Below are positions 18,149-64,000 of a DNA stretch of 64,000 nt, piece after piece; position 1 is the stretch's first letter, and each line of letters begins with the position of its first letter. The stretch is taken from positions 682,001-746,000 of the forward strand of contig OX596336.1 in NCBI GenBank assembly GCA_951394405.1. Direction: 5' to 3'. Below the pieces are notes generated by a model. That model worked only from the letters and a program-made list of their open reading frames with translations, was not told the DNA's origin and made no database searches. The translations under genes were made by a program, and so were the position numbers. The DNA is from Coprinellus micaceus (Eukaryota; Basidiomycota; Agaricomycetes; Agaricales; Psathyrellaceae).

Positions 18149-20006
<1,858 letters not shown>

Positions 20007-25367: not shown

Positions 25368-27873
25368 TCAGTCATAGATAACAGAAGCGGGGCCACTGTT
25401 TGTGGAGCGGGATGAGGTGAAGATTCAGCACGACCGATTTGAACAACGCACCGTTTTTCGACACCCTGCAAAGGAAGAAAACGTGCGGTGAGCTGCTGTT
25501 TGCGGAAGGCAAGGACGCGAGAAATGACGGCGTACATCCTCTATATATGCGATCTGGGCTTTCATTTCGGTCAAGCCGAAGAGAAGCACAATGTCGTAAG
25601 ATAGTTTGTAGTAGGGCCTCCCTTCGACATCGACATACTCTTTGAGTTTCACCCCCGAGAGGTCGGCTTCGACGGTGCAGGCCAGAGGGTACTTTCCTGC
25701 GGCGGTTGTTAGGGCTGATCCAATGTTTGAGGTGAGAGGCCTACCAAGTTCGTCCATCCAGGGGTGTGCTTTCGCACCCCCACCATAACTATGGATTAGG
25801 GATCGCTTCTTGGCTACTGACTCAAGGTCCCTCGTTGTATAATTGAAACCTCTGCGAAATTCCTGTGTGGCTTCAACCATGGTACCCTGAGAAATAGCAC
25901 ATGAAAATTGTTAGTGGGCGGTGCTTCGTGGCCTACCGGAACCGGGGACAGTACCATTGGGAGAATAGTATTGAAGTGGCCCCCTAGAACGGGTTTGCCT
26001 GTAACCCGATGAGTCCTGATGTGCCGACCTCGCTTGACATGCTCTGGCTTTGTTGAATCGTATGGTATATTGATTTCCATGCCGTAGGTTGCTCGCGACA
26101 TGCGCGAGCTGACGGCACCGTCAACATAATATGAGACGGCGCCGTTTGAAACAGCCTTATTCCTAGAAGTATTTCAGCAAGGCTTGCCAGCGCTGAGTCA
26201 AACCCAGATAGTTACACATGTGTGTCAGGTCGAGAGACAGTGATTCCGAGAGGTTCAACTCCGTCTCGTACCTTCTCATAGAGCCACTGGCTCGCCGAGA
26301 AGCCTCCGACAAGGAAGACTGTCTGACGCGGGTCAAGCCTTAGATGGGAAAAACGAAATGATATCCTTGGGACAGCACACCTTGATAGGAAATTGGGAAC
26401 CGGCCTGTTGTTCCTTGACGGCATTGACGATACACTTGGTAGAGGGCTCGAAGAACTTTGCGACGTCGTGCCTGAGCGAGTTCGTAAGTAACGTTGGAGG
26501 GGTGTAGAGGTGCCTAGCTTACCCTGCCAGAGTGAGACGGCCTCCCCGGATGTTCAATGTCGAGTCCCGTTCGCGGGCTGAGGCAAATTGGATATGGTGA
26601 GACTCGTCTTCCCGCTTAAATACGTGCTTCGTGTTTCTGTCGAAACGTGTGGTGAGGGTATCAACATCTGCTGAGTAACGGGTTCCTTCCAAGAGATCTG
26701 ACAGTCGCCGTGAGGTGAGAGCGCCGCTTTCTCGCGAGGAAGAGGCATACCTTCAAAGAAGCTTTTGGCTCGCATTGTTACGTAGGCTCCACCATGGAAG
26801 TAGCCTACGCAGGTGCATTAGAGGTGACAGCACTAGCCAAAAGGAACGGGATACAGCGTACACTGCGGAATGGCGATTTCGATAAAAGACCCGTTGGGGA
26901 GTTTGCGATATGTGGTCAAATCTATGGTGCCGCCCCCAGCGTCGACAATTAGGATCCCTGACGGTCCCTAGACGTAGCAGTCAGCGACGTTCAGATCGCC
27001 CAAAGCGACGACATACGTCGTCATTTCCTTGGACGCTGAGCCCGTTCGCGAGACAGAAGTGGAGACTGGCTTCTCCTTCGGTCACGAAGGTAACATTGGA
27101 GGCGGCTTCCGGGGTAGCACCTATCAAGCCAGCACGAATTGCAGCTTGACGCATTTCGTTCTGCTGAGGACCGCCCCAACCATTGGGATGAGTCAGAACG
27201 AAGAGGATATCGTTCTCGAGGGACGTCCATGTCGGTTCGCCATGAGTCTCAATGATATATGTCTTCGCACAGTCTCGGAGATATTTCATATAATCACTGA
27301 AGACTTCGATGACTGACTTGTTGAACGGTAGTGGAGGGACCTCTTCAGCGGGGTTAAAACGGGCCCCTTGTGTTTTTGGACGCATGTGAAGCTTAAACCT
27401 GTGTTTTTGAAGTCAACCAGAGTGTCACTCTGTGAAGATGACTCGAGAACTCACCAGACCGCCTTCCTCCAGCCTTCCTCTTCTGCGTCAGCCTCAATCC
27501 CTTCCTTCAGTGTCTCTGCACCGATAGCGCAAGGATCTCCATCAGAGTCGTAGTAGATGACTGTGGGTATTTTCGAGTCGCCCCCGACTTGCTCTTGGGA
27601 TGGGTACCTGCCGCGACATGTTCAACTTGCCTCCACAGCCATTGTTCTATCCCCCGATTCGTACCTGGTCACCGGCCTGATTTCGTACTCCTTCCCGGGA
27701 TCGAGAATGCTATATGACATGCGAAGGTCGGTTTAAAAGATCTTCTCGGGGAGGAGATGCAGGCTACGCAACCAGTACGAAATTCCGCTGAAGGTCGTTC
27801 CAATATCAAAGGCCAGGAGCAGCCGACGAGAAGTCCCCTTGTATTTTTTGCTGGTCTTCTTTTTCGTGGACAT
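25368..27873 (-). CDS. Hsp70-like (HSPA12-type) ATPase 2
   Basis: About 600 residues in roughly 14 exons. The start MSTKKKTSKKYKG is followed by RRLLLAFDIGTTFSGISY (27873 downwards). Then come SKIPTVIYYD, AIGAETLKEGIEADAEEEGW, FVTEGEASLHFCLANGL (about 27060), VDAGGGTIDLTTYRKLPNG (about 26930), FDRNTKHVFKREDESHHIQFASARERDS, TVFLVGGFSASQWLYEKV (about 26300), RPDTHV/NKAVSNGAVSYYVDGAVSSRMSRATYG, and LLFGLTEMKAQIAYIED. A 14-base microexon (25452-25465) encodes GVEK and part of R, and the last exon gives GPASVIYD, ending at 25368. It is divergent from partner gene A; the 289 bp between starts carry three GTCAC elements. An ATPase that changes conformation on nucleotide binding is implied by family; no substrate-binding domain of the classical type is seen. 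No lesion found. Confidence 0.87.
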
Positions 27874-28162
27874 AGTAGCTTCAACACTGCCCCTAGTGCA
27901 GACTTTTCACGGCTTCAGGATGACTGCAAGTCTCAAGGAGGACGAGGGTATGGGAGAGAAATTGACGCGCCCCAAATTGAACTGCCCCTGTCGCGCTCCG
28001 TCACACTCAGGGGTGTCACGGAATTGGTCACGCTGCGCATTCGCGTCTGCTCTGTTCCAGTCCAACTCGTTGCCCGCACAGATATTCTCTGCTCAGTGCT
28101 TCATACTGGCAATGTACCACCCTACTAGTGGGGAACCTCGTTATGCAAAGATATCGACCAAA
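27874..28162. promoter_or_regulatory. Shared divergent promoter of Hsp70-like 2 and partner A
   Basis: The 289 bp between the two proposed start codons contain GTCAC at 28000-28004, 28015-28019 and 28027-28031, within 32 bases. This is the same pentamer found clustered in the other divergent promoters of the locus. About one copy per 500 bp would be expected by chance on both strands. The function is inferred. Confidence 0.55.
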
Positions 28163-29845
28163 ATGAAGCCTAAAAACCCTGGTCGCAGCGGCAGCGACAA
28201 GACCCCTGGATCCAATAAGCAGACAGGATCCATCTCGCGACTTCCCAATTCATTCTCCAAGGATGCGTCAAAGAAGTCCCATGGAAGCTCTTCGAAGGAT
28301 CCAATTTGTTTAGGGGTCGTAGAGGGTGTTCTGGAGGATAACGGGGACGGCGAAAATCCGAATGGAAGCCCAGGTGGATCGCCCAATCGCTTTGCAGTCC
28401 TGGGAGTATCAAGCTCATTTCAAGGGACTAGTAGCTGCTGAAAAATCGAGCGGACGACGGAGATATTCGAGCCATGAGGGTGAGTGCTGGGGAGCGCTGC
28501 CCTGTATGAGAGTGTCGATTGACTTGTGTGATCGATTCAGCAGCAATGAAAAGGCCCCTCAGAGTACTCCAAGAAGACGATTTGCTGCATCGAGAGACCA
28601 CTCAACCCTCGAAACGCGTTCGTCACGTCGATGAGCAAGACGACGGTAGAAACCAAGAGGATACCTCACCAATCCTGAAGCTCGATCTCCGCAACACGGT
28701 CCGAAAGCGAGAGACTCGGACACTCGATTCAAAAGACGGCCAAGACAGTGTGCCTCATAAAGGCGAGAAGAGGCCGGACTTGCGAGACGCGTGCAGTGTC
28801 TTGGGAAAGAAACTGGACGCAATATCTCAAAGGTCTGCCGAGGCAGAGCGCGCACTCGACTATTCTCGCCGGAGAAGCGCGTACATCGAGGCGGAACTGG
28901 AGAAAACGAAGGAACTCCTAAGAACCCGTACTGAGGAGCTCACCATCGCCCAGGCCTTCATGACTACCGCAGATCGGTTCTCCGTGGCGGACGTTTGTCG
29001 CCTGGTTGAGCAACTCAACGACGATATTTACCAATGCTCCGCCCTACTCTCAGACCTTGTTCTTGAGAGCATAGGTGGCGCGAAGAGTGCAGACTCGAAG
29101 GAACTAGAAGAAAGCGTCAGGGCCTTCGTAAGAGTCTGGGATGAATCTCTGATCGCTCGCGTTCAAGCGGATGTAGCCAACGGCGACACCGTCCTGCTGG
29201 AAAGCATCATACAGTTTATCCTTGTAAGGCAATGTTCCACCATTTTTGATTCCATCTGTCCTGGGAATAGGGAGGTGGACAAGGAATTGCAAGCCTTGCG
29301 AAAAAGGATATGCCAATCTCGTACGCCGTCTCACTTTCAATATTAACAGACGTATTGAACGTAGCGTTCTTCCAGACGACCCTTCGATCGCCAGGAACTG
29401 GGTAGCGATGACGGTCGCGCAGTATAAGGACGACACAATGGATCCTCAGCCGGTCCTCAAGGTTGTGACAAGGATAATGATCGTGGCGGGGTGGCATCGG
29501 CCAAATTCAAGTTCATCCCGCTACCCCGAGGTGCTCACAGAGAAGTACACCGAAATAGCGACGAAAGCTGCTAAAATCAAGGAAATGGCACTCGAAGGAG
29601 TGCTATCCCAAGAGATTGCCCTGCTGAGCTACGTAAACGACACCAAATATCAGCCAGGTTCGATGCAAGGTGCATTCGAAGTTGGGAAACCGCGTCCAGC
29701 AGGGGCGAAGTCGTCCACATCACCGACAGAGAAGATCCTCTGTACGACTGCACTGGGTGTCCAGTGCGTGCGGCAGAGACCGATGCGAAGAGAAACTATC
29801 CTGAAGGCGAAAGTGCTGCTTCCCTCAAGCCTGGACCGGGAGTAG
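28163..29845 (+). CDS. Partner A: coiled-coil protein of the Hsp70-linked family
   Basis: I do not recognise a named family. The long central exon (from about 28541) has a Lys/Arg-rich part (KRPLRVLQEDD ... SKRVRHVDE). A heptad coiled coil follows (about 28790-28920), then the family signature LLRTRTEELTIAQAFMTTADRFSVADV with VEQLNDDIYQCSALLSD. After an intron at about 29319-29371 the C-terminal domain reads IARNWVAM ... GWHR ... EGVLSQEI ... MQGAFEVG ... CTTALGVQCV ... LKAKVLLPSSL, stopping at 29845. The first exon is uncertain. ATG 28163 opens a Ser/Lys-rich frame (MKPKNPGRSGSDK ... KDPICL) resembling the basic N-termini of D and G, but its frame does not join the central exon without at least two introns that I could not fix. 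Confidence 0.72.
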
Positions 29846-30818: not shown

Positions 30819-33379
30819 TCAATCTTCGTACACTATCGATGCGGGCCCCCTATGAATGTCGTCAGCCTTTCGGTATGAGGCAAAGTGGGGCAGGATGCAC
30901 ATACCTCTTCTCGATTCCCTGTGCGACGGGAAGAACATCAATATCACAATAACTGGTAAATATTCTCCCAATTATAACACTTACATCTTCTTGCCACGCG
31001 AGTTGGGCCTTCAACTCAGTGAGTCCGAACAAAAGGATGACTTCGTAATCCATTTCATAGTATAAACTGCCTGTAGGGTCCGTCATTTGTCTGGCCTGTA
31101 TACCCGAGGTATCCGCCTCGACCGTACACACGACGGGGTACATAGCTTCAAGATTCCCCAAAACGGAGTCAGCTTTAATGGTCACTTGAGAAATAAATGA
31201 GTATCGCACCAGGGTTGTCCCCAATCCAGTGCCGAGGTTCAGTAGATCTCCCAACGTATGAAAGTATTTCCAAAGATCGGCTTTCGAGTTCGTGGCGTTC
31301 CTTGGCGCCGTATTCGTAAGGGCGTCGGAACTCTTTGGTTTGCTTCACCATTGTACCCTGTATATCATGCGAGAGCGAGAGTCGCTCTGTGAGGGGAGAT
31401 TGTGCGCAGTAACTAGGAGAGCGAACCTTGGGGAGGATTGTCTCGAAGTTCTGGTCCAGTATAGGTACCTTGAGAGCGGGGTGAACTTGGACATGTCGAG
31501 CCCGCTGGAGGTGCTCCTGGTTTGATGAATCGTATACCTGGTATGTGGAGACACCATATGTAGCCCGAGCAACTCGAGTGCTGACAGCGCCGTCGACGAA
31601 GAAAGAGACAGCACCGTCTGAAACAGCCTTGTTTCTGCAGAGATAATAATCAACATCTCTATGGTGAGCAGATGACATCCGAAAGCATCAGGTACATACA
31701 CATGCGTGTCTGGGCGGGAGACAGTGATACCCAACGGCTCTATCGCTTGTCGAACCTTTTCATACAGCCAAGGACTCGCAGAGAAGCCGCCGACAAGAAA
31801 GGCGCTCTCCGTGTGCCATGTAAATACCAATTCAGGGAGGATGGCAACGGCAAACGCGTACCTTTATAGGAAATTGAGCCGTCGATTCCTGGGTTTTCAC
31901 GGCGTCAACAATGCACTGAATGGAAGGCTCGAAAAATTCAGAGATTCGATGGCTGAAAGGGTAAGCTGTCAACCTCAAGGTAACGGTCCAGGAAGGCGAG
32001 GACATGGCGTACCCAGGTATGGTGATTCGACCACTGCGAATATTTAGGCTCGAGTCGCGCTCTCTAACAGAGGCGAACTGGATATGGTGGGCTTCCTGCT
32101 CGTTCTTGAATACGTGCTTCGTATGTCTGTCGAAACGCGTGGTGAGGGTTTCCACATCAGAGACATATTTGCTTCCATCGAGCACGTCTGGAGGCAAGGC
32201 GTCAGACTGGGGTTAGGAGGAAGGGAGCATAGAATTGTGACCTTCGAAATAGCTCTCAGCCCGCATAGTAACGTACGCGCTGCCTTGAAAGTGACCTACG
32301 CTTCAGGACATCAGCATAGGCGACACTAGAAATGGGAAATGGCTTCTAACGAACATTGAGGAACTGCAATTTCCGCGAAGGTATGGTCGGGTAGCTTTCG
32401 ATAAGTCGTTAAGTCGATGGTCCCTCCTCCGGCATCGACAATCATGACGCCGTAAACTTCCTGAAGAATCGTCAGTAATTGGCTCGCCTTAGTCAACTGC
32501 GGCAGGTTGGGATACTCACACCCTTCTTTTGCGGCAGCTTCAATCCATTTGAGAGACAAAAATGGAGACTGGCCTCGCCCTCAGTGACGAAGGTCACGCA
32601 AGCAGCCCCCTCCTCGGTGTCAGGGATCAGACCAGCAAGAATGGCCGATTGTCTCAGCTGGGCTTGTTGCGCGCCTCCCCAACCGTTGGGATGAGTCAGA
32701 ACATACAGTATATCCTCTTGAACAGAGGCCCACAGACTCGCGCCATGTGTATCAGTTATGTAGGACTTTGCGCATTCCTTCAGGTACCTCATGTAATCGG
32801 CGAAGACCTGCTCAACGGTTTTCCCGTCTGGTAAAGCAGGCAGTCCTTCCTCGTGCGGATGGAAGCGAAACGAGGACGCGTCCACCTTCCTGGGTCGCAT
32901 ATGAAGTTTGAACCTGAGAGACGATCAGTCGAAAGTACGGCGGTCAAATGAGAACACCGTATCCTCACCAGCAAGCCTTCCTCCAACCAAACTCGGTAGC
33001 GTCGGCTTCGATCCCCTCCTTCAGGGTCTCGGCGCCGACTGCCCGAGGCGTTCCATTGGCATCATAGTATATCACAGTTGGGATTTTGGAGTCGCCCCCA
33101 ACGTGCTCCTGACACGGGAACCTTGTGGGTGGTCATTTCAACGCGCGCTTAGTCCTGCAATACCAAGTCCCACCTCGTCACTGGCTTGATCACTGGAATG
33201 TTTCCTGGATCGAGGACGCTACAGGGTGGTCTGCGTTCCATGTCGGCGCCCATTGTTCACAAGGGGACGACTAACCTATAGGAAATCCCACTGAATGTTG
33301 TGCCAATGTCGAAGGCCAGCAGAAGTCGTCGAGTTTCGCCATTATACTTCTTACGAGTTGGGGCACGGGAGCGGGGCAT
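30819..33379 (-). CDS. Hsp70-like (HSPA12-type) ATPase 3
   Basis: About 600 residues in many short exons. The N-terminus is MPRSRAPTRKKYNGETRRLL, followed by LAFDIGTTFSGISYR. Later motifs are GAETLKEGIEADATEFGW, THPNGWGGAQQAQLRQSA, FVTEGEASLHFCLSNGL (about 32570), VDAGGGTIDLTTYRKLPDH (about 32430), AFLVGGFSASPWLYEKV (about 31790), RPDTHV then NKAVSDGAVSFFVDGAVSTRVARATYG, and LLFGLTELKAQLAWQED. The 14-base microexon at 30905-30918 encodes GIEK and part of R, and the last exon reads GPASIVYED to 30819. It lies head-to-tail downstream of Hsp70-like 4 with 326 bp between. It has no adjacent coiled-coil partner, although its upstream region has the GTCAC/GTGAC cluster. No frameshift noticed. Confidence 0.86.
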
Positions 33380-33705: not shown

Positions 33706-36257
33706 TCACTCGTATACGATTGTCATGGGACCGCTGTAAACAAGATGGGATGGTCAGAGGATGATGCTGAAGGAGAAGCGCCTGGGCCGACCTACCGCTT
33801 TGCAACTCCCTGGAGAGCGGAGAGAGGGAGCGAGAGAGAGAGGTACGATCAGCGAATTGGCCTGAACAAGACAAGGAAGGGTCACGTACATCCTCCACGT
33901 ATGCGGCCTGTGCCTTCAGTTCAGTTAAGCCAAAGTGCAAGACAATATCGAAGTGGATGTCGTAGTAGGTCTCCCCACTGGCATTGGTATGCTTTACTGG
34001 CCGCACTTTGGATATGTCGGCCTCGATTGTGCATAGGGTGGAATATTTTTCTAACAAGGTCAATGTTGGGAAGGGCCCAAGGAGTTGAGGGGGAACTTGA
34101 ACCCACCAAGTTCGTCGGGCATAAAGAACGACTTTTCCTGCTTTCCCGTGTAGGAGATGATCTGGAACTTTCTCCGAGTCAACGTTGCAGGAACCTTCAC
34201 AGACAAAACGTAGCTGCGCCTGAATTCCTTCGTCGTTTCGACCATTGTACCCTGTGCACGCGAGTATAAGCGATGGTTCTGTACGCGGAACAGAAACCTC
34301 GATAACTACCACTGGTAGGATGGGACCGAAGAATCGATCGATGTATACCTTGCCATCCACAGGATCGACTTGAATGTGTTTAGCTCGTTTGACGAGCTCA
34401 GGGTCTGAGGAACTGTATTCGCGCACAACGCTAGTGCCATACGTAGATCGGGACATCCGTGTGCTGACGGCTCCATCGACGTAGTATGAGACTGCACCAT
34501 TCGAGACCGCCTTATTCCTGCGCGACCCTCGGTGAGTGAGCCTTGGTAGACCATGGACAACTGTGAAGGAAACAAACGTACACATGCGTATCAGGCCTAG
34601 AAACTTCGATTCCAAGCGACTCGATTCCCTCTTTCACATTCTCGTAGAGCCAGTGGCTCGCCGAGAAGCCTCCCACTAGGAACACCGCCTTTCAAAGCAT
34701 CGGATGTCAGCGTCACGGGGAGGTAAATGGTAGGTCTTGGGGACGTACCTTGATGGCATACCTTGAGTTCGTTTTCTGTTCTTTGACGGCGTCGATAATG
34801 CACTTGACGGAAGGCTCGAAGAACCCGGCGACTTTGTCTCTAAACTAGGAATGAGCGCTGGAAGGTCAAATTAGTAGGCCATCTCCGCTTACCCAGCCAA
34901 CGTTAGGCGGCCCCCACGTATTCCCAACGTCGAATCTCGTTCGCGAGCGGACGCGAACTGGATGTGGTGCGGCTCATCCTCCCGCTTGAAAACATGCTTC
35001 GTGTTCCTATCGAAGCGTGTGACGAGAGTTTCAACATCCGCAGAGTAACGGGATCCGTCCAAAAGGTCTGTAAGGACGGATTCTTAGAAGGCGTTGGTTC
35101 TAGCTCAAGGAGCGAGAACGAACCTTCAAAATAGCTCTTCGCTCGCATGGTAACGTATGCACTACCTTGTAGGTAACCTACGCGAGAAGTTGCGTCAGTT
35201 TAGGTTTGAATTTTAGAGAGGTGTCTCGGCGTACACTGCGGGATGGCTATCTCAGTGAAAGAACCGTCGTCAAGTTTGCGGTAGGTCGTTAAATCGATCG
35301 TTCCGCCTCCAGCATCAACGATTAGGACGCCTGTGGGTTCCTGCAAGGCCTTAATAAGCGAAACCCACATGCGGCAAGTACATTGTTCGTACCTCCTCCT
35401 CGTCTTGAACGGTCAGACCGTTCGACAGGCAGAAATGAAGGCTAGCTTCCCCTTCAGTAACGAAGGAGACCTGCGAAGCGCCTTCCTCAGTGTCGGGAAT
35501 CAGACCACCAAGGACGGCGGCTTGGCGCATCTGACTTTGCTGCGGGCCAGCCCAGCCGTTGGGGTGCGTCAAGACATACATGATATCGCCTTCGAGCGAC
35601 GCCCATAGCTTCTCCCCGTGGGGGTGGGTGTCGGTGATGTAGCTCTGCGCGCATTTGCGAAGGTACTTCATGAAGTCTCCGAAGATTTGGAGGACCGTTT
35701 TACCCAGAGGCAATGGCGGAACCTCTTCTTCCCTGGGACCCGACCCTCGACCCGACTTGGATGTCTTCGGTCGGAGATGAAGCTTGAACCTACTTGATGT
35801 TAGCAAAAGGAAGGAACCGAGAGAAACGAGTTTTCGTTCTAACCAGCGAGCCTTCCTCCATCCAAACTCTTCAGCATCACCCTCAATACCTTCCTTTAAT
35901 GTCTCTGCTCCAATCGCGCGCACCTCCCCTTCAGCATCGTAATAGATGACCGTCGGGATTTTCGAGTCGCCGCCAACCTGCTCCTGCGCGGGATACCTGC
36001 ATCACACATGCCAGGGCATGATTAGACAACACAAAACGAGCACCGGAAACTTCATACCTGGTCACTGGCCTGATTTCCGGAACCTTTCCTGGGTCCAAGA
36101 TACTGTAAATGAGCCGTTGGCATTGCGGGTTGATACAAAGAAGCACTGTGAAAGGCTCGAACCTGTAAGAAATCCCGCTGAACGTGGTGCCGATGTCGAA
36201 AGCAAGAAGCAGACGACGAGCGTCGCCTTTGTATTTGGGGCGCTTGGACTCGGCCAT
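33706..36257 (-). CDS. Hsp70-like (HSPA12-type) ATPase 4
   Basis: About 600 residues. The start MAESKRPKYKGDA is followed by RRLLLAFDIGTTFSGISYR. It continues with SKIPTVIYYDAEGEVRAIGAETLKEGIEGDAEEFGW, FMKYLRKCAQSYITDTHPHGEKLW, FVTEGEASLHFCLSNGL (about 35435), VDAGGGTIDLTTYRKLDDG (about 35310), FDRNTKHVFKREDEPHHIQFASARERDS, AVFLVGGFSASHWLYENV (about 34650), RPDTHV then NKAVSNGAVSYYVDGAVSTRMSRSTYG, and LHFGLTELKAQAAYVED. The 14-base microexon at 33796-33809 encodes GVAK and part of R, and the last exon GPMTIVYE ends at 33706. It is divergent from partner B, sharing a 185-bp promoter. Reading frames join cleanly. Confidence 0.86.
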
Positions 36258-36442
36258 GAGAAGAAGAGGAGTCGGGGGAGGAGGAGACGGTTCGAAATTG
36301 CGCGCTGGTCAATGCGTCACAAACCGCGTCCCGTCACGACCTGGTCTTAGCGCGTGATTTGTGACATGGTCCTTTGGTGTCACGCTCGATGGTCTCGGGG
36401 ACGCTCCTGTCCACCGTATCCTTCTCTCTTCCGACCAATATC
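36258..36442. promoter_or_regulatory. Shared divergent promoter of Hsp70-like 4 and partner B
   Basis: Only 185 bp separate the two proposed starts. GTCAC occurs at 36316-36320, 36333-36337 and 36379-36383, and GTGAC at 36361-36365, several next to GCG steps. This is the shortest of the four divergent promoters and so the best place to define the minimal element. Confidence 0.58.
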
Positions 36443-43843: not shown

Positions 43844-43917
43844 TGGACACATTGGGAATTGAACCCAACACCTCTCGCATGCTAAGCGAGCGTGATAACC
43901 AACTACACCATGTGCCC
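43844..43917 (-). tRNA. tRNA-Ala (anticodon AGC), copy 1
   Basis: The minus strand folds as a complete 74-nt cloverleaf: acceptor GGGCACA/TGTGTCC, D-arm GTGT..TCAC, anticodon stem CTCGC/GCGAG with loop TTAGCAT (AGC), and T-arm TTGGG/CCCAA with loop TTCAATT. The B box GGTTCAATTCC matches the RNA polymerase III consensus. There is no intron. Its sequence is identical to the copy at 44119-44192. Confidence 0.9.
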
Positions 43918-51829: not shown

Positions 51830-53655
51830 CTAGTCTACCGTTTCCAAAGCGGATGGAAGAAGGACCTTAGGTTTTAGAACAACTTCCCACTTCCTCTGAC
51901 TGGCCCGCTCCTTTGCGGACGACCGTCTTTCTCTTGCAGTGCAACGTACACCTAGCCCAGTAGAGCAGATTATTACCTCGGCGCTTGACCCAGCCCGGCC
52001 TGAAGGGGCGTCAAGATCCCAAGGGTCCTGCATTTCGGAGGGATCGAAACGCGCGCCATCCTCGTAGTAAAAGACATCGACGTCGGCCGATAGAATACCC
52101 TCTGTGATGGCCTCCTTTATCTTCGACGCCCTCTCACTCAGCTCCCCTACCTTCTCCATCACCTTTGTGGGCAGCGCTCGGGATCCCTCTGCTTCAAGAT
52201 TCCACCCTCCGATAGCCATTAAAAAGTACAGGCCCTGCATGATGTTCGAGTGGTCTACGACGGGCGATTTGAGTTGTGAATGCGTTATCGCCAGCCATCT
52301 CTTCGCAATCGGTGTCTCGTCTTTGCTTGTTGTCAGTCAACCAAGTATCGCAGTCAGAGGCCACCCTGGATACTCACAGGCTATTGTAACGCTGTCCCAC
52401 AGAGCTAAAAATCGATTGTCGAACTCCCGACTCTCAAGGGAGAACGATTTCACAATTTCGTAGCACCGACACACCAACACGTGCTGAAGCAGGGACTCAA
52501 AGAGCGTGGTTTCATCTTCCCTCACGCCCGCTTGGAGGCGTGAGACAAGCGCGGAACCCCATCGCTGTTCCACTCTCTGACAGACATCCAACATGTTGGC
52601 TTCATCGTCTTCGTCCTTCTGAGTCACCATTCCCCTCTGCTCAATGAGAGCGTCCGACATCATCATGGTGCACTGGTAGATCTCTTCATTGAGCTGGTCC
52701 ACCATGTGGCAGATATCCGCTATTGAATGCTCATCGGCAGTCGTCAAGAACGTTTGGGCCAGTCTGAGCTCTTCCGTGCGAGACTTTAACAATTTCTGTG
52801 ACTTCTGAAAGTTTTCTTCCATGCGTTCCGATTGTATCGTCAACTGTTCGAGCTGGCGCTGGACCTTGACCCCTTCATCATGCAACCTTTCGTTTTCCTT
52901 CTCAACCAGCCGTAGCTCCTGGTTCTCCTTTTCCACCCGTCGCAACTCCTGATTCTCCTTCTCCACTCGTCGCAACTCCCGAGAGACTTCCGCCATCCTC
53001 TCTTCCGCTTGGATATTCGCGGAATTTAGCTGCTCCCGGAGTATGCTGAAGCTTTCCTCCCATTCAGCGATCCTCCTCGTCGCGCTCTGCAGTTCGAGTT
53101 CGAGCTGGTAGACTTCTTGGGACCTTTGCTTTATAATACCTTCCATTTCCACCTTTTGGGACTGCCATGTCCTCAAGGCGTCGTCCTCTTGCCCGGGGTT
53201 CTCCTGGACCGCAGGGGGCGAGGCGGTGAAGCTTGGCCGGCTCGACGGCAGGCCCATTTGCTGATCCTCTGACCCAGATCTCCGGGTGTCTGACCTTGTC
53301 TGATCATACAACTCCGTGCCTATGCTAGTGTCGATGAAAAGGAATCGGCGGGGCTGAACATCTCGCTCACCTCGTTTCTGTTGATTGGGGGCGCGCACGT
53401 TACGGTCCTTACCATCTGCGCATTCGTAGTCAGAGAAATGTATTCAGGGGGGCACACTTCTAACTATTACATACTGTGATGCTCTCTCGGCGACCTGTGG
53501 TCATCCCTTGGAGCTTTTCCATCGCGGCGGAACCCTTCCCGCTGGATAGGCGGGGCGCTCGCCTCTTGGCCTTTCGCTTCTTCCGTCGACCCCGGCGCTC
53601 TGCTCCTGTCCTTTTGAGAACCGGAGAAAGTCGTCCAAGGCCAGTCAATGGGCAT
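51830..53655 (-). CDS. Partner F: RS-type coiled-coil protein of the Hsp70-linked family
   Basis: A proposed exon 1 from ATG 53655 is basic and charged (KDRSRAPGSTEEAKGQEASA ... REHH) and resembles the RS-rich first exons of E and H in style. An intron at about 53417-53475 joins NGKDRNVRAPNQQKRG. The main exon carries a coiled coil with a short tandem repeat, LRRVEKENQE / LRRVEKENQE / LRLVEKENER. The signature LLKSRTEELRLAQTFLTTADEHSIADI with VDQLNEEIYQCTMMMSDALI follows. After an intron near 52325-52380 the C-terminal domain reads PIAKRWLAITHSQLK ... GGWN ... EGILSADVDVF ... MQDPWDLD ... CSTGLGVRCT ... LKPKVLLPSAL, ending at 51830. It lies head-to-tail downstream of Hsp70-like 7. The start codon is the weakest part of the model. 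Confidence 0.75.
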
Positions 53656-54003: not shown

Positions 54004-56577
54004 TTAGTCCTCGTAGACGACTGTCGCCGGCCCACTATACAGACACACTTAGCGATCGAGGCTAACATGAACATCTCATGGCAAACCAACTCTTACCGCT
54101 TTTCGACGCCCTAGAGGTTACGCGGGTAAGAAAGAGAAGACGAGGAATGGGAAAGTCGGCGTACGTTCTCCAAATAAGCAATCTGGGCTTTGAGCTCCGT
54201 TAAGCCAAAAATTAGAACGATGTCGAATTCGATGCTATGGTATGGCGCTCCGGTTGTTGATTTCTTTACAGATGCCTTCACAGAAGATGTGTCGGCCTTT
54301 ACGGTGCACGCTCTGAGAAACATATCTGGTCGGAGATGTAGACTTAGCGAACAACCCTATGATCACCCTGGCAGATACGATGACACACCTGGTTCCTCAT
54401 CCACCCATTGCGGATCGTTAGATTGTCCGGTATAACAGTAAATAATCGCGGTGGGCTGGTCCAACGAAGAGCGGTCGGATTCCGATGTAGAGAAGGAGCT
54501 ACGGAATTCGGTTGTTTCCTTCACTCTGGTGTTCTGTATTGAAAATAGTATCATAAGCATGGGATAACGGTGGGCGGAGTGCTTGTCTGAATGGTTACCT
54601 TTGGTAATATGGTCGAAAAGAGGCCATATAGGGTAGGGCTCCCTGATACTACATGGACTTTGATGAGATGACCCCTTTTGCGGTGGGCCGGGTCTGTGGA
54701 GTCGTACGTCGTGTGGCACCTGACCCCATACGTTAGTCTAGAGACCCTAGAGCTGACAACGCCGTCTAGGTAGAACGATACAGCGCCATTCGAGACCGCC
54801 TTGTTGCTAAAAGGTGGTGGTTCTTTGAGCAAGGCGGGCAGGCTTGATAACGGGACCCATACGCACACATGTGTGTCAGGTCGCGAGACCGCAACTCCGA
54901 GGGGCTCAATACCCTTGCGCACGTTCTCACAAAGCCAATGACTAGCGGAGAATCCGCCGACTAGGAAAACCGTCTGGCAGCACCACGGCCCTTAGTACGA
55001 ATATCCTACTTTCAAGTCCCACCTCGCTTACCTTGATTGGGGCGTGCGCCGCCGAGATCTGGTCCTTGACTGCTTGAACGATACACGAGATCGACGGCTC
55101 AAAAAAGGTAGCTACGTCTGACCTGTAGTAGATATGAGGGCAGGATGCCTGGCGCAGCCTTGAAAGAGGTACTTACCCCGCCAGCGTGAGCCGACCACCG
55201 CGAATGTTGAGGGCCGCGTCTCGTTCACGGTGAGAGGCGAATTGGATATGATGAGGCTCGTCGCCTTTTCGGAATACGTGCTTGGTATTTCTGTCGAACC
55301 GCGTTGTAAGGGTGTCGATGTCTTGAGCGAAGCGAGTCCCAGAGAGAAGTTCTAAAGGAATCGTGTTAGAGTCATATTTGGATGAGATGGTGGACAGAGT
55401 GATATACTATGGAAGAACTGCTCCGCTCGTATGGTAACGTACGCAGCGCCCTGGAAGTGGCCTGTCAGAGTAGAAGCAGGAGTGAGCAATGAGACACGAA
55501 GGCATGCAAGATCAACGTACATTTCGGAATGGCGATCTCTTCAAACGAATGGTCGGGCAATTTGCGATAGGCTGTGAGGTCAATGGTACCCCCGCCAGCA
55601 TCAACGATCAAGACACCGTCTCCCTATACGACAAATTATGGGGCCAAATCAATAAGCAGAGCCAACCTGATGCTCTCGATGATAACATTACCTCGTCGCC
55701 CTCGATCTCCAGCCCATTCGAAAGGCAGAAATGCAGGCTCGCCTCCCCTTCTGTGACGAATGTGACGCGAGCACGACCTTCCTCCGTGTCCGATATGAGC
55801 CCGGCCGTGATTGCGGCAAGCCGCATCTGTGCTTGCTGTGGCCCTCCCCAGCCGTTAGGGTGCGTCAATACATACATAATATCGTCTGCGAGGGATGCCC
55901 ACACCCTCGCCCCATGTGTCTCCGTGATGTACTCCTTCGCACACTCAAATAGGTACACCATGTAGTCAGCGAACACTTGCACGACCGCCTTGCCGGGTGG
56001 CAGAGGTGGGACAGAGTCCGATTCGTCAGGGTCAGGGGCTAGACTCAAGCGCCTGAATATCGAGAACATCGATGCTGGTCTCGGTTTCGGGCGCAGGTGC
56101 AGCTTGAACCTAAGAGTGGAGGCGCTATGTGGGTGCACGGTCGATTTAACTAGCACACAAACTCACCAGCATGCCTTGGTCCACCCATTCTCCTCCGCAT
56201 CCTCTTCCATTCCTTCCTTCAGTGTCTCTGCACCTATCGCACAGACATCGCCGTTAGAATCGTAGTAGGCGACGGTTGGTATCTTCGAATCTCCTCCGAC
56301 GTGCTGCTGACACGGGAACCTTGGCAGAAGAAGGGTGCCAGTTAGTCATGCAGATCGCGTTGGGAGGACATCGTAAAGCTCACCGTGTCACTGGCCGAAT
56401 CTCAGGGACGCAACCAGGGTCAAGGATACTGTACATATCGTCGAATCAGTTCCCCATCGATTTGCAGTTAAAGGCCACACACCTGTACGAAATGCCACTG
56501 AACGTCGTCCCGATGTCGAAAGCCAACAAAAGCCTACGAGTATACCCCGCGTACTTCTTTCGTTCTGGTAAATCCAT
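54004..56577 (-). CDS. Hsp70-like (HSPA12-type) ATPase 7
   Basis: About 600 residues. The start MDLPERKKYAGYT is followed by RRLLLAFDIGTTFSGISYR. It continues with SILDPGCVPEIRPVTR, AIGAETLKEGMEEDAEENGWTKACW, FADYMVYLFECAKEYITETHG, FVTEGEASLHFCLSNGL (about 55735), VDAGGGTIDLTAYRKLPDH (about 55600), FDRNTKHVFRKGDEPHHIQFASHRERD, TVFLVGGFSASHWLCENV (about 54960), RPDTHV then NKAVSNGAVSFYLDGVVSSRVSRLTYG, and LIFGLTELKAQIAYLEN. The 14-base microexon at 54097-54110 encodes GVEK and part of R, and the last exon GPATVVYED ends at 54004. Neighbours are G upstream (same strand, 317 bp away) and F downstream. Its 5' region has one GTCAC (56653-56657), not a cluster. Confidence 0.86.
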
Positions 56578-56893: not shown

Positions 56894-58638
56894 TTACTGA
56901 GGAGCCTGGGGAGTCAAGGTAGACGCCAGGAGGACCTTCGCCTTCAGAATGATCTCGGCTTTCCGTTGGGTCTGTGTGGAGCTGGACGACGTAGACACCC
57001 TCTTGACATACCGAAGCCCAAGTCCCGTTTGACATACGACGATATCGTCTGGGGGGATATCCTGCGAATCGTACGCATCTTGCATGTACGCCGGGTTATA
57101 ACCCCTCTTCGTTGGGGCACGGAACACTTCAACGTCAGCGGAGATGATGCCCTCCATCGACATCTCCCTGATCCTCAAAGCTTTCTGTTGGATCTGGGAT
57201 AGCTTTTCGAGTGCCATCTCGGGGAGCTTGGGGTGCGAAGAGGATCCCTCCACCCGCCAGCCGCCGACGGTCAGTAGGCACACGAGGATCTCAAAGGTGC
57301 TTTCGGATTCGACTTCCTCGGTCTTCATTTGGGAGCTGGTCATCGCGAGCCAGTTTTTAGCTATGGCGGGTTCACCTATAAGGGGTAGGAGGAAAATAAG
57401 CCATTATACAGAAGGGCTTACTCCGATGGACGAACATGATACACTCAGCTTCTCCCAGACTCCCCTCAAGGCTTTGTCGAGACCGGCGTTCCCCGGACAT
57501 ATTGAATGGATGAGGCCAGCGCACCGAGTAGTAAAGATGTTTTGGATTAGGCTCTCGAAAAGTACCGGGTCGGGGTCCTCTTGGGCGAGGTCAGCGAGAA
57601 GCCGGGAAGTAAGCTCTTCACCATAGCGATTTGCGACGGTGTTGCGGGCGTCTTCCACTTCCACCGCTTCTCCAGGTTTTCCGCCGTCAGACGCTTTCTG
57701 CTCGAGAACCATATCGGAGAGGTTCAAGGCGGCTTGGAAAATGTCGTTGTTGAGTTCCTCTACCAGGCGAGAGAGATCTGCGACGGAGAATTGGTCGGCA
57801 GTCGTCATGAAAGCTTGAGCGATAGTGAGCTCCTCTGTCCGGGCTTGAAGTAGCGACTTGGTTTTCTCGAGCTGACTCTCCGCCCCTTCACACTTCCGTG
57901 CGAGGCCGTGCAGCTGCACGACGAGGTGCTGCTCGCGCTGGGTGAGTTCGTTTAGTTGGTGTTCTAATCGCTGTCCCCATTCCTCCCCTTCTGACAGGCG
58001 TTTCCTCTTGCGATCCAGCTCGGACTTCAATTTGCAAATCTCGTCCTCTTTAAGCTGTAGGTCACGCTGAAGTTTTTCGATAGATGTTTGGCATCCCTGC
58101 CGCCCCGCGTCCCAGTTCTGCTTCTGTAGTTCCGGGGGGTCGTCGCCATGGTGCTTTGGCTGCCTCGCCGAATCGTTGGGGAGGATATCCAGTTCGTCGT
58201 CGTCGGTATCACTCTCGGAGAATAGTCCCTTCGAAGACCCCCGACCTTTCCCTTCAAAGTCCAGCTGTCGGCGGCCGTTCTTCGCGTCTAGGATAATTTA
58301 GTGATGACTTCCGAGGAATAGATTCGAGAAACGTACCGCTGCTTGCATCCTCCAGCCGAGGTCGGGTCGACCGAGAGTTCTCAGCAGCTCCTGCCAGTTG
58401 TGGAGCCCAAGTCATAAACTGTTGGCTTAATGAAGATAGGAGACTTACGACGAGCCAATTCCTCCTGGCGTTCATCCTCCGAATCTTCAATTATCTCATC
58501 TTCTTCATTACTATCGAGAAGAATTGGGTTGTGGAACGAGTTGATTTTAGGAGCTGGACAGCGCTTGCGCTTTAGGGATTTATTCTCAGGAGGCGAGGGT
58601 GAGATCAAAGATTTGAGAGCCGTGATCCAGCTCCCCAT
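56894..58638 (-). CDS. Partner G: coiled-coil protein of the Hsp70-linked family
   Basis: Exon 1 from ATG 58638 reads MGSWITALKSLISPSPPENK, then SLKRKRCPAPK (possible nuclear localisation signal) and the acidic block NPILLDSNEEDEIIEDSEDERQEELARR, the same order as in partner D. One or two small introns between about 58260 and 58450 are not fixed. The main exon has DFEGKGRGSSKGLFSESDTDDDELD, a coiled coil (about 58085-57870), and the signature LLQARTEELTIAQAFMTTADQFSVADL with VEELNNDIFQAALNLSDMVL. After an intron at about 57373-57450 comes AIAKNWLAMTSSQMK ... GWRV ... EGIISADVEVF ... MQDAYDSQ ... CQTGLGLRYV ... LKAKVLLASTL, ending at 56894. It is divergent from Hsp70-like 8. An in-frame upstream ATG (58731) exists but 58638 matches D better. 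Confidence 0.82.
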
Positions 58639-58914
58639 GGTACCGCGACGTTGTAGTTCAAGACGGCCTCGAGGTGGTTTGTGGTTTGTGACAAGGACGC
58701 GAGCGTGACTCCAGAGCACGTGAGCGGTCACCAGCGTGACACCCGCGGCGCGTCGAAAATCAAAAATAATTAATTATTTTAAACCTAACCCTACGGCGCA
58801 CCTCCTCGTCCCGTGTCCATTCCAGTGCCTTGACCAGTTACGAGGTCCTCGACCTCGGCATACACCCCCGACTCGTGTCTGAACTCGTTCTCCACCTTTC
58901 ATTCGTTTCTCGAC
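58639..58914. promoter_or_regulatory. Shared divergent promoter of partner G and Hsp70-like 8
   Basis: 276 bp between starts. GTGAC at 58688-58692, 58705-58709 and 58736-58740 and GTCAC at 58727-58731 lie within 53 bases on the G side, the same side and spacing range as in the D/6 promoter. An AT-rich block (AATAATTAATTATTTTAAA) lies at about 58766. Confidence 0.58.
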
Positions 58915-61447
58915 ATGGGTGTTCCTGCTCGCAAGCCGTACAATGGCCAGACGCGTCGCCTTCTCCTTGCTTTCGATATAGGGACAACTTTTAGTGGAAT
59001 ATCCTACAGGTATGGTGACTGCATTTCAGAGGAGGGAATGTTCGTTGAAAGTTGCGTTCTACAGTATTCTCGACCCCGGAAAGGTCCCCGAAATTCGCCC
59101 AGTAACGCGGTACGTGTCAAATGAACATCAAAAAGGCGTCGGCGCTGCGGGTTTGAACGTCTTCTCAATGATACATAGGTATCCATCTCAAGAACAAGTT
59201 GGCGGGGACTCGAAGATACCGACAGTTATCTACTACGACTCTGTTGGGAAACCTCGTGCGATTGGAGCTGAAACGTTGGTGAGGGGATCGAGGCGGACGC
59301 AGAGGACAACGGTTGGACGAGATCTCGCTGGTGGGTGAAGTCGCCATCTCCAGGCTCTGGGCGATTTTATTTAACCTTGATGCGTGCACAGGTTCAAGCT
59401 TCACCTTCGCCCGAAGCCCGTTACATCGGGAAAAGGTACCAAAATCAAAGAAGAACCGATCCCTCCCCTACCTCCAAACACGACGGTGGTCAAAGTCTTC
59501 GCCGACTTCATGAAATATCTTCATGAATGCGCGAAGACCTATATTAGTGAAACGCACGGCGATAAGTTGTGGGTGTCCCTCAAGAGCGACGTCATGTACG
59601 TTCTGACCCACCCTAATGGATGGGGAGGTGTCCAGCAGGGGCAGATGCGCCGGTCTGCCATTCTTGCTGGTTTGATCCCCGACACGGAGGCGGGCGCGTC
59701 GCGCGTCTCGTTCGTGACGGAAGGCGAGGCCAGCCTTCACTTTTGCCTGTCGAATGGGCTGACCGTGCATGAAGAGGACGACGTATGTACACTTCCGTCG
59801 CCTCACGCGCTCCAGCCTTGACAATTGCACCCAGGAACCAACAGGAATATTGATCGTTGACGCAGGCGGAGGAACCATCGACTTGACGGCCTACCGCAAG
59901 CTGCCGGATGGCTCCTTCACGGAGATCGCGGTTCCGAAATGTGAGTGTGCTACATACGTTGGACTGCATGGCGCCAATGCAGATACTGACGTCGCGTCGT
60001 ACCTCGGCAGGTTACTTCCATGGCGGAGCCTTCGTTACGATGCGAGGTCGAGACTATTTCCGCCGTATGATAAATACCTTCCGATCGTTTAAACTACCTT
60101 CTTAACGCTTCATTTTACAGAGCGGCTAGGCAAAACCCGCTTCGCCCCCGACGTAGAAACTCTCACCACGCGCTTCGATAGGAACACGAAGCTCGTGTTC
60201 AAGCGGGACGACGAGCCGCTTCACATTCAATTCGCCTCTGCGCGTGACAATGATCCAAAACTGGGTATACGAGCAGGGCGATTAAAGCTAGAGGGGTACG
60301 CATGCCGATACTCCGTCTACTGGGTATATAAACTAACGTCGGACGCAGAAAGGAAGTGGCCAAGTTCTTTGAGCCTTCCATAAATTCAATTGTGGAAGCA
60401 GTCAAAACCCAGATGATTACTGCGCACAACCCCATCAAGGTGATATCTTCTTCCTCACTCTATACAAGCAACCCGAGGACTCGAATATCTCTTTCAGACC
60501 GTTTTCCTCGTGGGTGGCTTCTCTGAGAGCCCATGGTTGCATGACCAAGTCAAGGCAGCGATTGAACCGCTCGGAGCCAAGGTGTCGCGTCCGGATACGC
60601 ATGTGTAAGCGTTCCTCTTCTCACCGCCACACCCTTAGCCCTAAACTGCCATCGCAGAAACAAGGCTGTGTCCAACGGCGCTGTATCTTTCTACATCGAC
60701 GGCTCCGTGAGCTCGAGGATCTCGCGGGCGACCTATGGCACCGAAGTCTATCACACATACGACAGCACGGATAAGAACCATGTCAAACGGGGTTCTAAGA
60801 CCAAGGTCCATCCGACCACCGGCGAACCCGTTCTCTACGATGGCTTCGACGTGATTCTACCCAAGGTGGGTATGTCGTGGTTTCATCGCCTCTACGTGTT
60901 CTTAACGAGTGTCGTTATGATTACAAGGACACTATCGTGAGGGCCACAAAGGAATACCGGCGCAACTTCTCAACCTCATCTAAACACCGCAAGGTATTGA
61001 ACACCAACTCTGCTACTATTTTCGCGTACTGCGGCGACGCCGAAGATACAGACAATCTATGGATGACCGACGATCCAGGTTTGTTTCCTTTCCTATCTTC
61101 CTCCCGCTACCTAAAGCTCAGTCTTCTCCTATTAGGCTCGTTCGACCGCTTATGCACTATCGAGGCGGATACGTCCGGGGTTGTCGTCCAGACTCTAACC
61201 TCACCTGATGGGGAGACGTATTATCGAAACTCCTTCAGCGTGGTCTTGCAATTCGGATTAACTGAACTTAAAGCCCAGATTGCCTGGCAGGAAGACGTAC
61301 GTTTCGTCCCTCTCCCTGTGAAAGTGTGTGTCGATATGTATGTACTTACTAGGGAGTCGAAAAGCGGTATGGGGCCTCTTATTTAGTTGCACGCCTGCCA
61401 CTAACTTCCCTGACAGTGGCCCAGCGTCCGTCGTTTTTGAGGGGTGA
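58915..61447 (+). CDS. Hsp70-like (HSPA12-type) ATPase 8, one-base frameshift in exon 3
   Basis: Same exon plan and motifs as Hsp70-like 6. It begins MGVPARKPYNGQT, then RRLLLAFDIGTTFSGISYR, SILDPGKVPEIRPVTR and SKIPTVIYYDSVGKPRAIGAETL. At about 59276-59281 the frame shifts. Codons after GAETL read VRGSRRTQ, whereas the -1 corrected frame would continue as the family's EGIEADAE..GWTRSRW block, and the uncorrected frame meets a stop near 59338. Later exons are open: FVTEGEASLHFCLSNGL (about 59720), VDAGGGTIDLTAYRKLPDG (about 59860), TVFLVGGFSESPWLHDQV (about 60500), RPDTHV then NKAVSNGAVSFYIDGSVSSRISRATYG, and LQFGLTELKAQIAWQED. A 14-base microexon (61353-61366) and GPASVVFEG complete it. No alternative intron restoring the frame was found. 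It is either a very recent pseudogene or a sequencing error. Confidence 0.85.
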
Positions 61448-61765: not shown

Positions 61766-64000
61766 TCAAGGGCTGAAGGTCAACTGAGTGACGACTTTAG
61801 CCTTCAACACAACCTCCTGCCTACGCTCACCACCACTTGTGTGCCCCGAGTTCGGCCTGGCTGCGATGCAGCGCAATCCCAAACCTGTCGTGCAGATGAT
61901 GGCTTCGCCATCACGGCACTGGGCACTGGAGCTCTTTCCAGGGACGTCGTAGGCGTCTTGCATTCGTTGAGAGTCGAAGGTATCCCCCTTGTCGAAGCAG
62001 AAGACCTCAATGTGCGCGGAGAGGACTCCCTCTGAGATCACTTCCCGAATCTTGATCGCCTTCGCAGTAATTTCCGTCAGTTTCCCTCGGAGTGTGTCTT
62101 CCAATGCAGACGCGCCTGGGCGCCAGCCGGTTGCGACCAGCAAGTCCACTAGGCATCGGAACACATGGGGGTTGTCGAAGGGTCGCTGCTTCAGCGCCGA
62201 GTTCGTGATCGCTAACCAATTTTTGGCGATTGGCATCTCGTCTGCAGAATGAACGTGGTCAGGTCACGACCGCTCCAAGGTGAAGGAAGGGGCGCGTACG
62301 CGATTCGAGAATATGACCCCAGAGTCCTCCAATGTACCGGTCGACCTCCCCACTCTCTACAGAGAAGCGGTGGACGACTTCGTGGCATCGATACACAAAC
62401 AGGTTCTGCGCAAGGCACTCAAATAGGATCAGGTCGCTCCTCTCCGCCCCAGCTCGGAGGTCAGAAACCGAATTTACGCCCCATAGTCTAGAAACCGTGG
62501 CACAAGCCTCCTCGTACCTGGATTTCCAGGCGTCATCTTCGGAAGTGAATTTGAGGGATGATTCTTGGCCCTTCAGGACCTCGTCGGACATGTCCATCGC
62601 ACACTGGAAGATCTCGTCGTTAAGCTGGTCCACCATGCGTGAGACGTCCGCAATTGAGTAGTGATCCGCCGTGGTCATGAAGGCTTGAGCGACCTTGTTC
62701 TCTTCCGTGCGCGCCTCCAGCAGCTGCTTCGTCTGCTCGAGCGTCTGTCCCATACCGGACAGCGTCTCATGGAGATGTTTGATCTCCAAGTCCTTGTTCA
62801 CGATCTCGCCTTTCTGGCGCTCGACCACCTTTTTCGCGCGGCGGCAATGCTTCTCCCACTCCGCCGACTCGTCGAACACCTGTTTCGAAATTTCGAGTGA
62901 GATGTCTTGCTGGCTTATGATGTCCCTGAGACTCCTGATCCCGTCCGCCATAACATTCCTCTCCTGCTCCCATGATGCTTGTTCAGTATCGTGCGTCTTC
63001 AACTTTTCTTTTAGCTCCGCCTTCTCCTGCTCCCATAATACTCGCTCAGCATCGTAAGCCTTCAACCTTTCCTCCAATTTCGCCTTCTGCTGGTCCCATA
63101 TTCGTTTCTCATCCTCTGCCTTTGATTTTGCCTCCACTTCCAATGGTTGGTCATCGCGTTCTTTCCCTGAAGGTGGTGCAAGGCGACAGGAGGGGCAAGC
63201 GGAGGATTCGGCTTGTGTCGATCCATTGTCGACCAGTCCGGACGGTTCGTCGTGTGTGCCAACGCCCTGGTCCTTGTGAGAGGCTCGATGATTAGGCTGT
63301 GATGACCCGGGTTTGGATGGAGGACTATCCACGTCCATGGGTTTGTCGATGGTCCCGAGTGATGCATCTCGAACAACGTTCATGTGCTGGGACGAGTTGG
63401 ACTCTTTTCTGACTTCCCTGGACTCTGGAGGGTCGGCGGCGTGTTGGGTGAGTAAACCGGGGGGACAACCGGGCTCTTCCTTTACCGTTGACTCTTCGCG
63501 CTGGACTGGGGGAGGAGAGCGAACTCTGGACGGGGTAAAACGATCGTACGACCATCTTCGCCCACTATCCCGCGGCGAGTCATGTTTCGGGAAAACAGAG
63601 AGGTCCTCTCGCTCCTCCTTGACCCTGCCTTTCGGAATTCTCAGCAAGCCGGCGGGGAAAGCGCCTGGCAACAGTGGTCATACCTTGAGGCCCGTGGTAG
63701 TTCCGATCACGATATTGACCGGACTCTCGTCGTTTCCGGCTCTTATCTGTGAGCGAGTACGTTGTAGACCCAGAGTGCTTCTGGCCACGTTCCCTCCAAA
63801 AGTTTTTGTGGTCCCCTGAGTTGCGGTGGTCGCGCCCGGAGTTGTGGTTGGAATCTGCACGTCGTTTATCCCCAATATTACTCCAAGGATTCGACGAACT
63901 CATAGGATTAGAGAAAATTTCCCTGGCCCCCCTGCCATCGTCGTATCCCTGTCTTCTAGGGGACCGTGGACGTGAACCGTCTGAACGTCGGTAGTCTTCG
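61766..64000 (-). CDS. Partner H: RS-rich coiled-coil protein (5' end beyond the window)
   Basis: Partial at the right edge: exon 1 runs from beyond 64000 to about 63684 and is the RS-rich first exon seen in E (SRPRSPRRQGYDDGRGAREI, then DKSRKRRESGQYRDRNYHGP). A 55-bp intron joins GRVKEEREDLSVFPK. Exon 2 carries TPSRVRSPPPVQREES, a long coiled coil with a tandem motif (EKAELKEKLKTHDTE-type repeats, about 63000-63120), and the signature LLEARTEENKVAQAFMTTADHYSIADVSRMVDQLNDEIFQCAMDMSDEVL. After an intron (about 62250-62310) the C-terminal domain reads PIAKNWLAITNSALK ... GWRP ... EGVLSAHIEVF ... MQDAYDVPG ... CTTGLGLRC ... LKAKVVTQLTF, ending at 61766. It is convergent with Hsp70-like 8, just as E is with 6. 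The C-terminus deviates from the usual KVLLxSTL. Confidence 0.83.

What the first reader, a model, noticed from the sequence alone, without database searches (positions are those of the whole stretch)
25368..64000. Candidate two-component system: Hsp70/HSPA12-like ATPase plus an unrecognised coiled-coil protein, amplified in one locus
Over 39 kb there are seven Hsp70-like ATPase genes (eight with the lone copy at 1.6 kb) and eight genes of one coiled-coil family, with almost nothing else except two tRNAs. Four pairs are divergent from shared promoters and one pair is head-to-tail. The equal numbers and repeated pairing suggest the two products work together, for example the coiled-coil protein as an adaptor, co-chaperone or target of the ATPase. 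Local amplification with diversification of both partners is the pattern seen in recognition or conflict systems, but nothing in the sequence proves that role. I do not recognise a described system of this kind.
Basis: partly seen in the sequence, partly recalled or inferred. Interest (0 to 1): 0.9.

Follow-up and report, generated by a model that had tools for sequence, protein, structure and literature searches.

The report
Hsp70-like ATPases with GrpE-like partners
A gene array in what looks like a fungal genome holds many Hsp70-like ATPase genes next to genes for a coiled-coil protein whose tail is predicted to fold like GrpE, the helper that resets Hsp70 in bacteria and mitochondria; this suggests an unrecognised chaperone pair, though no activity has been shown.

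Summary
In detail: eight Hsp70/actin-like ATPase genes (H1-H8), eight genes of one coiled-coil family (A-H), four head-to-head pairs and several tandem neighbours. The equal numbers are a window effect: the genome has at least 37 H loci (some fragments) and about 23 P genes, 19 of them in C3:710-945 kb. The guess of a co-chaperone gains a specific form. The P architecture (long coiled coil, helical bundle, C-terminal beta domain) is that of GrpE, and a model of the isolated C-terminal domain has its six best VIA-align rows all to GrpE, with a gap to the next fold. Foldseek and sequence profiles do not reach GrpE significantly, so I say 'works like GrpE', not 'is GrpE'. Neighbouring H and P distances are correlated, and the divergent promoters share clustered GTCAC elements. 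The pairing arises partly from block duplication; label permutation shows no overall excess of H-P adjacency. Paralogues show purifying selection in alignable parts, so a conflict role is unsupported. No other fungus could be searched; the organism was not identified and 'fungal' is inferred. Best reading (0.55): a GrpE-like nucleotide exchange factor, probably outside organelles, for an HSPA12-type ATPase, amplified as co-duplicating units.

The parts
1555..3886 (+). H1, Hsp70/HSPA12-like ATPase, lone copy of the other H clade
   Evidence: gene model; tree; three ATP motifs
25368..27873 (-). H2, Hsp70-like ATPase, divergent from A
27874..28361 (.). shared intergenic region H2|A, 3 GTCAC/GTGAC elements, nearer to H2
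28362..29845 (+). A, coiled-coil partner (start 28362 or 28546)
30819..33379 (-). H3, Hsp70-like ATPase
33723..36257 (-). H4, Hsp70-like ATPase, divergent from B
36258..36442 (.). shared intergenic region H4|B, 4 GTCAC/GTGAC elements in 185 bp
36443..38253 (+). B, coiled-coil partner
38952..41439 (+). H5, Hsp70-like ATPase, upstream of C in tandem (ends differ)
41816..43504 (+). C, coiled-coil partner (start 41816 or 42008)
44470..46209 (-). D, coiled-coil partner, divergent from H6; source of structure model m73fb9b06d7ee (44473-45720)
   Evidence: the last exon (44275-44445) is probably wrong, the open frame stops at 44470
46210..46502 (.). shared intergenic region D|H6, 4 GTCAC/GTGAC elements
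46503..48889 (+). H6, Hsp70-like ATPase
49264..51087 (-). E, coiled-coil partner
51830..53655 (-). F, coiled-coil partner (start 53655 or 53522)
51833..52183 (-). C-terminal GrpE-like beta domain of F (model me18d2b8e11a3)
54093..56577 (-). H7, Hsp70-like ATPase, between G and F in tandem
56894..58638 (-). G, coiled-coil partner, divergent from H8
58639..58914 (.). shared intergenic region G|H8, 4 GTCAC/GTGAC elements
58915..61447 (+). H8, Hsp70-like ATPase
61766..63681 (-). H, coiled-coil partner (start uncertain, 63583 or 63681)

Best explanation
The partner family is a GrpE-like nucleotide exchange factor (NEF) for the HSPA12-type Hsp70 ATPase encoded beside it. Proposed cycle: the ATPase binds a client through its C-terminal part. 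A partner dimer, held together by its long coiled coil, inserts its C-terminal beta wing into the cleft of the nucleotide-binding domain, opens it, releases ADP and so resets the ATPase. The head-to-head gene pair under one GTCAC-rich promoter keeps the two products balanced and has multiplied as a unit, giving many H/P pairs. Shown by calculation: the gene pairs, intact ATPase motifs, correlated divergence, shared promoter elements, and a partner architecture with a predicted beta domain that best matches GrpE. Inferred: binding, dimerisation, nucleotide exchange, pair specificity, and location in cytosol or nucleus.
Confidence: 0.55

Rival explanations
1. The partner is a coiled-coil adaptor or scaffold that binds the ATPase but is no exchange factor; the likeness to GrpE is a coincidence of a small beta domain behind helices.
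For: Sequence profiles do not reach GrpE; Foldseek E-values are not significant; helical proteins give middling Z easily (note).
Against: All six top rows of the isolated domain are GrpE, with a gap to the next; the order of parts and the FDP-type motif agree.
Confidence: 0.2
2. No partnership: two unrelated families sit in one tandem array and were amplified together by block duplication.
For: Blocks are visible: D-H6-E with G-H8-H (H6/H8 74%, D/G and E/H 40% identity) and G-H7-F with C3:776.9-783.6 kb (dS 0.27, 0.30, 0.39). Label shuffles show no overall adjacency excess (p 0.27). Both families also occur unlinked.
Against: Divergent pairs stayed linked through near-saturated synonymous divergence, with correlated distances after the two most recent duplicates are removed; promoters are shared; the partner looks like an Hsp70 cofactor.
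Confidence: 0.15
3. The array is a recognition or conflict system (allorecognition or defence) in which matched ATPase/partner pairs guard against non-self.
For: Local birth and death with fragments, low identity among partners, and a bacterial precedent: HSP70 with GrpE genes in about 14% of GAP1-N2 conflict neighbourhoods (PMC7159879, passages).
Against: No pair has dN/dS above 1 (17 of 18 computable, alignable parts only); no effector domain was found in the 8 partners tested. The fungal immunity review PMC10197012 has no occurrence of Hsp70, HSP or chaperone (term count).
Confidence: 0.1

Closest known systems
GrpE / GrpEL1 (nucleotide exchange factor of DnaK and mitochondrial Hsp70)
   Same: Long helix, helical bundle, C-terminal beta wing; best structural match of the isolated C-terminal domain; FDPxx[MH]-type motif in register; gene next to an Hsp70-like ATPase, as bacterial grpE often is next to dnaK (recalled).
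   Different: Pfam GrpE does not match; the helical part is larger; a long variable N-terminus; about 23 copies; the genome's ordinary, probably mitochondrial GrpE is a separate gene at C5:3376278 (E 9.5e-39).
HSPA12A/HSPA12B (atypical Hsp70)
   Same: ASKHA ATPase motifs of the forms DIGTTFSG, DAGGGTID and VGGFSAS; very divergent from canonical Hsp70. The likeness to HSPA12 is recalled, not computed.
   Different: Amplified to at least 37 loci in one genome; no GrpE-type partner appears in the HSPA12 passages of the review PMC13149161.
Bacterial GAP1-N2 GTPase conflict neighbourhoods with HSP70 + GrpE (PMC7159879, passages only)
   Same: A Hsp70 and a GrpE-type exchange factor encoded together, linked to a special system.
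   Different: There they come with GTPases and FNIII proteins, often fused to DnaJ; here no DnaJ match lies in the array.
Eukaryotic cytosolic Hsp70 exchange factors (BAG, HspBP1/Fes1, Hsp110; recalled)
   Same: Same proposed task outside organelles.
   Different: Different folds (recalled).

Membership tests
GrpE | C-terminal beta wing fold | tested here: inconclusive
GrpE | Order long coiled coil, helical bundle, beta domain | tested here: met
   Predicted D model: helix 20-117, eight further helices (one includes read-through intron residues), then strands between 329 and 403
GrpE | Sequence profile (Pfam PF01025 or profile-profile) | tested here: not met
   No Pfam hit; genome search finds the ordinary GrpE and one sub-threshold match elsewhere, none at partner loci; hhalign probability 1-5%
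GrpE | FDPxxH-type signature (PROSITE pattern recalled) | tested here: inconclusive
   [FY][DN]P in 9 of 20 partners; of 18 parsed by a pattern that allowed only M, H or V at the H position, 17 have M and 1 has V; the three divergent partners lack [FY][DN]P
GrpE | Binds Hsp70 and releases ADP | not testable with these tools
   needs purified proteins
Hsp70/actin-like (ASKHA) ATPase | Phosphate-1, phosphate-2 and adenosine motifs | tested here: met
   All three in 21 of 24 models; the misses are H8 (third motif), the truncated h770 (third) and h899 (second); four fragments were not counted
Hsp70/actin-like (ASKHA) ATPase | Profile similarity to Hsp70 | tested here: met
   hhalign to pieces of four Hsp70-family genes of the same genome, which lack the first part of the NBD: local E 5e-5, probability 67%, 298 columns; global E 6e-7, probability 86%, 395 columns. 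NCBIfam hits at E<=1 are only to YegD, MreB, FtsA, DnaK, HscA and TsaD/Kae1 types
Hsp70 (Pfam PF00012) | Pfam gathering score | tested here: not met
   No hit at E<=0.1 for four members; none of 48 genome matches lies in C3:620-1010 kb
HSPA12 subfamily | Closer to HSPA12A/B than to other Hsp70 | not tested
   no HSPA12 sequence or model was compared; the label is recalled
Fungal allorecognition or conflict locus | Diversifying selection or allelic polymorphism | tested here: inconclusive
   dN/dS 0.11-0.67 between paralogues in alignable parts; no population data

The most novel reading that the evidence does not exclude
Mushroom-type fungi carry a nucleo-cytosolic GrpE-type exchange factor family dedicated to HSPA12-type Hsp70s, and have amplified the ATPase/exchange-factor unit into an array of co-diverging, possibly matched pairs. 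This would be a GrpE-like regulator outside organelles in a eukaryote and a candidate co-chaperone for the HSPA12 class.
Probability: 0.4. Interest if true: 0.85.

Novelty: new variant of a known kind. Interest (0 to 1): 0.68.

Why it matters
How HSPA12-type Hsp70s are reset is, as far as the passages read here tell, not described. A GrpE-like partner encoded beside them would give a direct handle on that cycle, extend GrpE-type exchange beyond organelles, and make an amplified array of unknown function testable. It also turns 'unknown coiled-coil protein' into a protein with a predicted fold, a predicted interface and an assay.

Tried and rejected
Pfam on the 8 window partners: 14 families at E<=0.1, each in 1 of 8 members, best ATG16 at 6e-5, mostly coiled-coil types. 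PDB by sequence: 69 matches at E<=1, 60 shown, best E 0.00036, all in the N-terminal, coiled-coil half of the profile (positions up to 261 of 524). Foldseek on both models: no match at E<=0.001. VIA-align rows of the whole D model are led by unrelated long-helix and other proteins, so I folded the C-terminal domain alone. Profile-profile GrpE test: not significant, told as such. Adjacency permutation: no overall excess. Simple heat-shock words (GAAnnTTC, TTCnnGAA): none in the four divergent regions. DnaJ in the array: no match. dN/dS above 1: none. Cross-species search: viral contigs and prokaryote genomes gave no relatives; these collections are not made for fungi, so this says little. That the pair is not in print is claimed only as far as ten answered paper searches go; searches failed. 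I saw listings, and passages of five papers, no whole text. One search was loose and its 12 listed papers are not relevant.

Splicing was predicted by my own script and some models are wrong in places (C-terminus of D, parts of H4, H5, H7, H8). Decayed or cut copies (hD, h770, h794, h803, h919, p774, p777) have unreliable models. p774 and p777 were kept in the partner tree but dropped from the GrpE profile tests. hD, h794, h803 and h919 were dropped from the H tree and motif count. A weak partner-like match at C6:2173959 (E 0.002) was not counted. In the distance test I chose one H for each P by hand where two lay near, and left out partners without a clear choice (E, H, G's second neighbour, p774, p775, p777, p784). 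The dN/dS script skips poorly aligned stretches, which lowers the ratio. The tree flags C, p943 and p1001 as long branches.
Full report
What is there. The window is C3:682001-746000 of a 50.3-Mb genome in 17 contigs whose genes have many short introns; I take it to be fungal, but no call names the organism. Comparing all open frames of 40 residues or more with each other gives two large families. Spliced models give eight Hsp70-like genes (H1-H8) of about 560-700 residues and eight coiled-coil partner genes (A-H) of about 410-590 residues. H2|A, H4|B, D|H6 and G|H8 are head to head. H5>C, H7>F and G>H7 are tandem.

The array is larger than the window. Searching the whole genome with D, H6, the divergent partners p1001 and p943 and the H-type h932, plus gene models on the stretches I could fetch, gives 28 H models on C3 between 627 and 938 kb (hD, h770, h794, h803 and h919 are fragments and hB is short), one further short H-like piece at C3:746.2 kb, and 9 H loci on C1, C5 (three), C6, C8, C10 (two) and C11. 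The tool warns that counts of large families are lower bounds. The partner family has about 23 members: 19 on C3 found with D (18 at 710-945 kb and one at 1002 kb), p942 beside p943 at C3:941.5-942.9 kb, and C2:1670, C2:261, C5:1124 kb. Unread gaps remain, such as C3:749.5-767 and 809-888.5 kb; they were covered by the searches only. Of the 23 partners, 14 lie under 1 kb and 17 under 2.4 kb from an H model, some of these being fragments; p942 and p943 are about 4-5 kb away, and four have no near H. Equal numbers are therefore a window effect.

How the pairs arose. Trees place H2, H4, H6, H8 with H3 in one clade (support 99/99) and A, B, D, G with p772, p777 and the C2:1670 copy in another (92/94, partly unresolved inside). 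The divergent unit thus seems to have multiplied as a unit. A second kind of block, G-H7-F, recurs at C3:776.9-783.6 kb, with dS 0.27, 0.30 and 0.39 for its three genes, as one event would give. D-H6-E and G-H8-H are an older repeat (H6/H8 74%, D/G 40%, E/H 40% identity). Distances between neighbouring pairs are correlated: r 0.69 (p 5e-5) for 11 hand-chosen pairs, r 0.68 (p 2e-4) and r 0.55 (p 0.003) with one and two recent duplicates left out, r 0.80 (p 0.005) for six window pairs. Against this, shuffling family labels over fixed positions shows 11 H-P junctions against 7.5 in the window (p 0.051) and 4 of 4 divergent junctions H-P (p 0.089), but no excess in the next array (6 against 7.5, p 0.85; 0 of 2 divergent junctions H-P), and p 0.27 together.

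Promoters. The four divergent regions hold 15 GTCAC/GTGAC words in 1242 bp; 5000 sets of random windows from the held sequence have a mean of 2.5 and a maximum of 11. Clusters of the same word lie about 100-160 bp before several other H genes (H3, h788, h798, h804, h891, h904) and before p772; H1, H5, E, F and H have none in 400 bp. I saw the motif before I counted it, and shared descent may explain part. No heat-shock element of the simple forms searched was found in these regions.

The ATPases. Pfam HSP70 does not match, but all three ATP motifs are present in 21 of 24 models. The weak NCBIfam hits are all to Hsp70/actin-like ATPases, and a profile of 20 H models aligns with Hsp70-family genes of the same genome (local E 5e-5, probability 67%; global over 395 columns, probability 86%), the global alignment running into the region of the canonical peptide-binding beta domain. 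The models end soon after, so a helical lid is probably missing; the GrpEL1 contact of D171 with the lid would then have no counterpart. The HSPA12 label is recalled. Phosphate-1 begins 18-26 residues from the start in 23 of 24 models (60 in h778), so there is little room for an organellar presequence; no predictor was run.

Mechanism. GrpE works as a dimer: a coiled-coil stalk, a helix bundle and two beta wings, one of which opens the nucleotide cleft (PMC4753570 passages). By analogy the partner would be the exchange factor of the neighbouring ATPase. No step of this was tested. A, B, D and G, the divergently paired partners, have a short basic KRKR or KRVR stretch near the start (also the unpaired C2:261 copy), which could be a nuclear signal.

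Selection. dN/dS between paralogues is 0.11-0.67 (17 of 18 pairs; H6/H8 is saturated), counted only where a pair aligns well, so both families look mostly constrained. A recognition or conflict role is not supported, though bacterial conflict neighbourhoods with HSP70 and GrpE exist (PMC7159879 passages).

Limits. No other fungus could be searched, no complex could be predicted, no control domain was folded, and no expression data were available. What I say on novelty rests on the paper searches listed under Tried and rejected.

Noticed in passing
43844-43917 and 44119-44192: Two tRNA-Ala(AGC) genes in inverted orientation, 201 bp apart, between partner genes C and D.
   Followed up: no
about 50900-51552 and 63480-63999: E and H share an almost identical N-terminal coding stretch and upstream DNA although the proteins are only 40% identical overall, which looks like recent gene conversion.
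   Followed up: partly
G000:C3:895756-901434 and C3:932071-937864: Two H genes (h895, h899) recur as an inverted copy (h935, h932) at 96% and 91% identity of aligned codons.
   Followed up: partly
G000:C3:941515-942926, C5:1123800-1126000, C2:260500-262400, C3:1001603-1003456: Divergent members of the partner family without a near H gene, or about 4 kb away; perhaps the older, dispersed form.
   Followed up: partly
22356-24605 +: Single-exon gene with DUF2828 and DUF7788 domains.
   Followed up: no
18149-21368 +: Subtilase-family (Peptidase_S8) gene with a sub-threshold I9 prodomain match; the 3' part of the model is unreliable.
   Followed up: no
4835-6734 +: F-box-like protein gene.
   Followed up: no
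11714-12307 + and 14160-14798 +: Two similar open frames (168 bits) without Pfam match at E<=0.001.
   Followed up: no
G000:C3:772032-773719 (p772): A D-like partner with the four-copy GTCAC cluster of a divergent promoter but no head-to-head H gene beside it, perhaps a relic of a lost pair.
   Followed up: no
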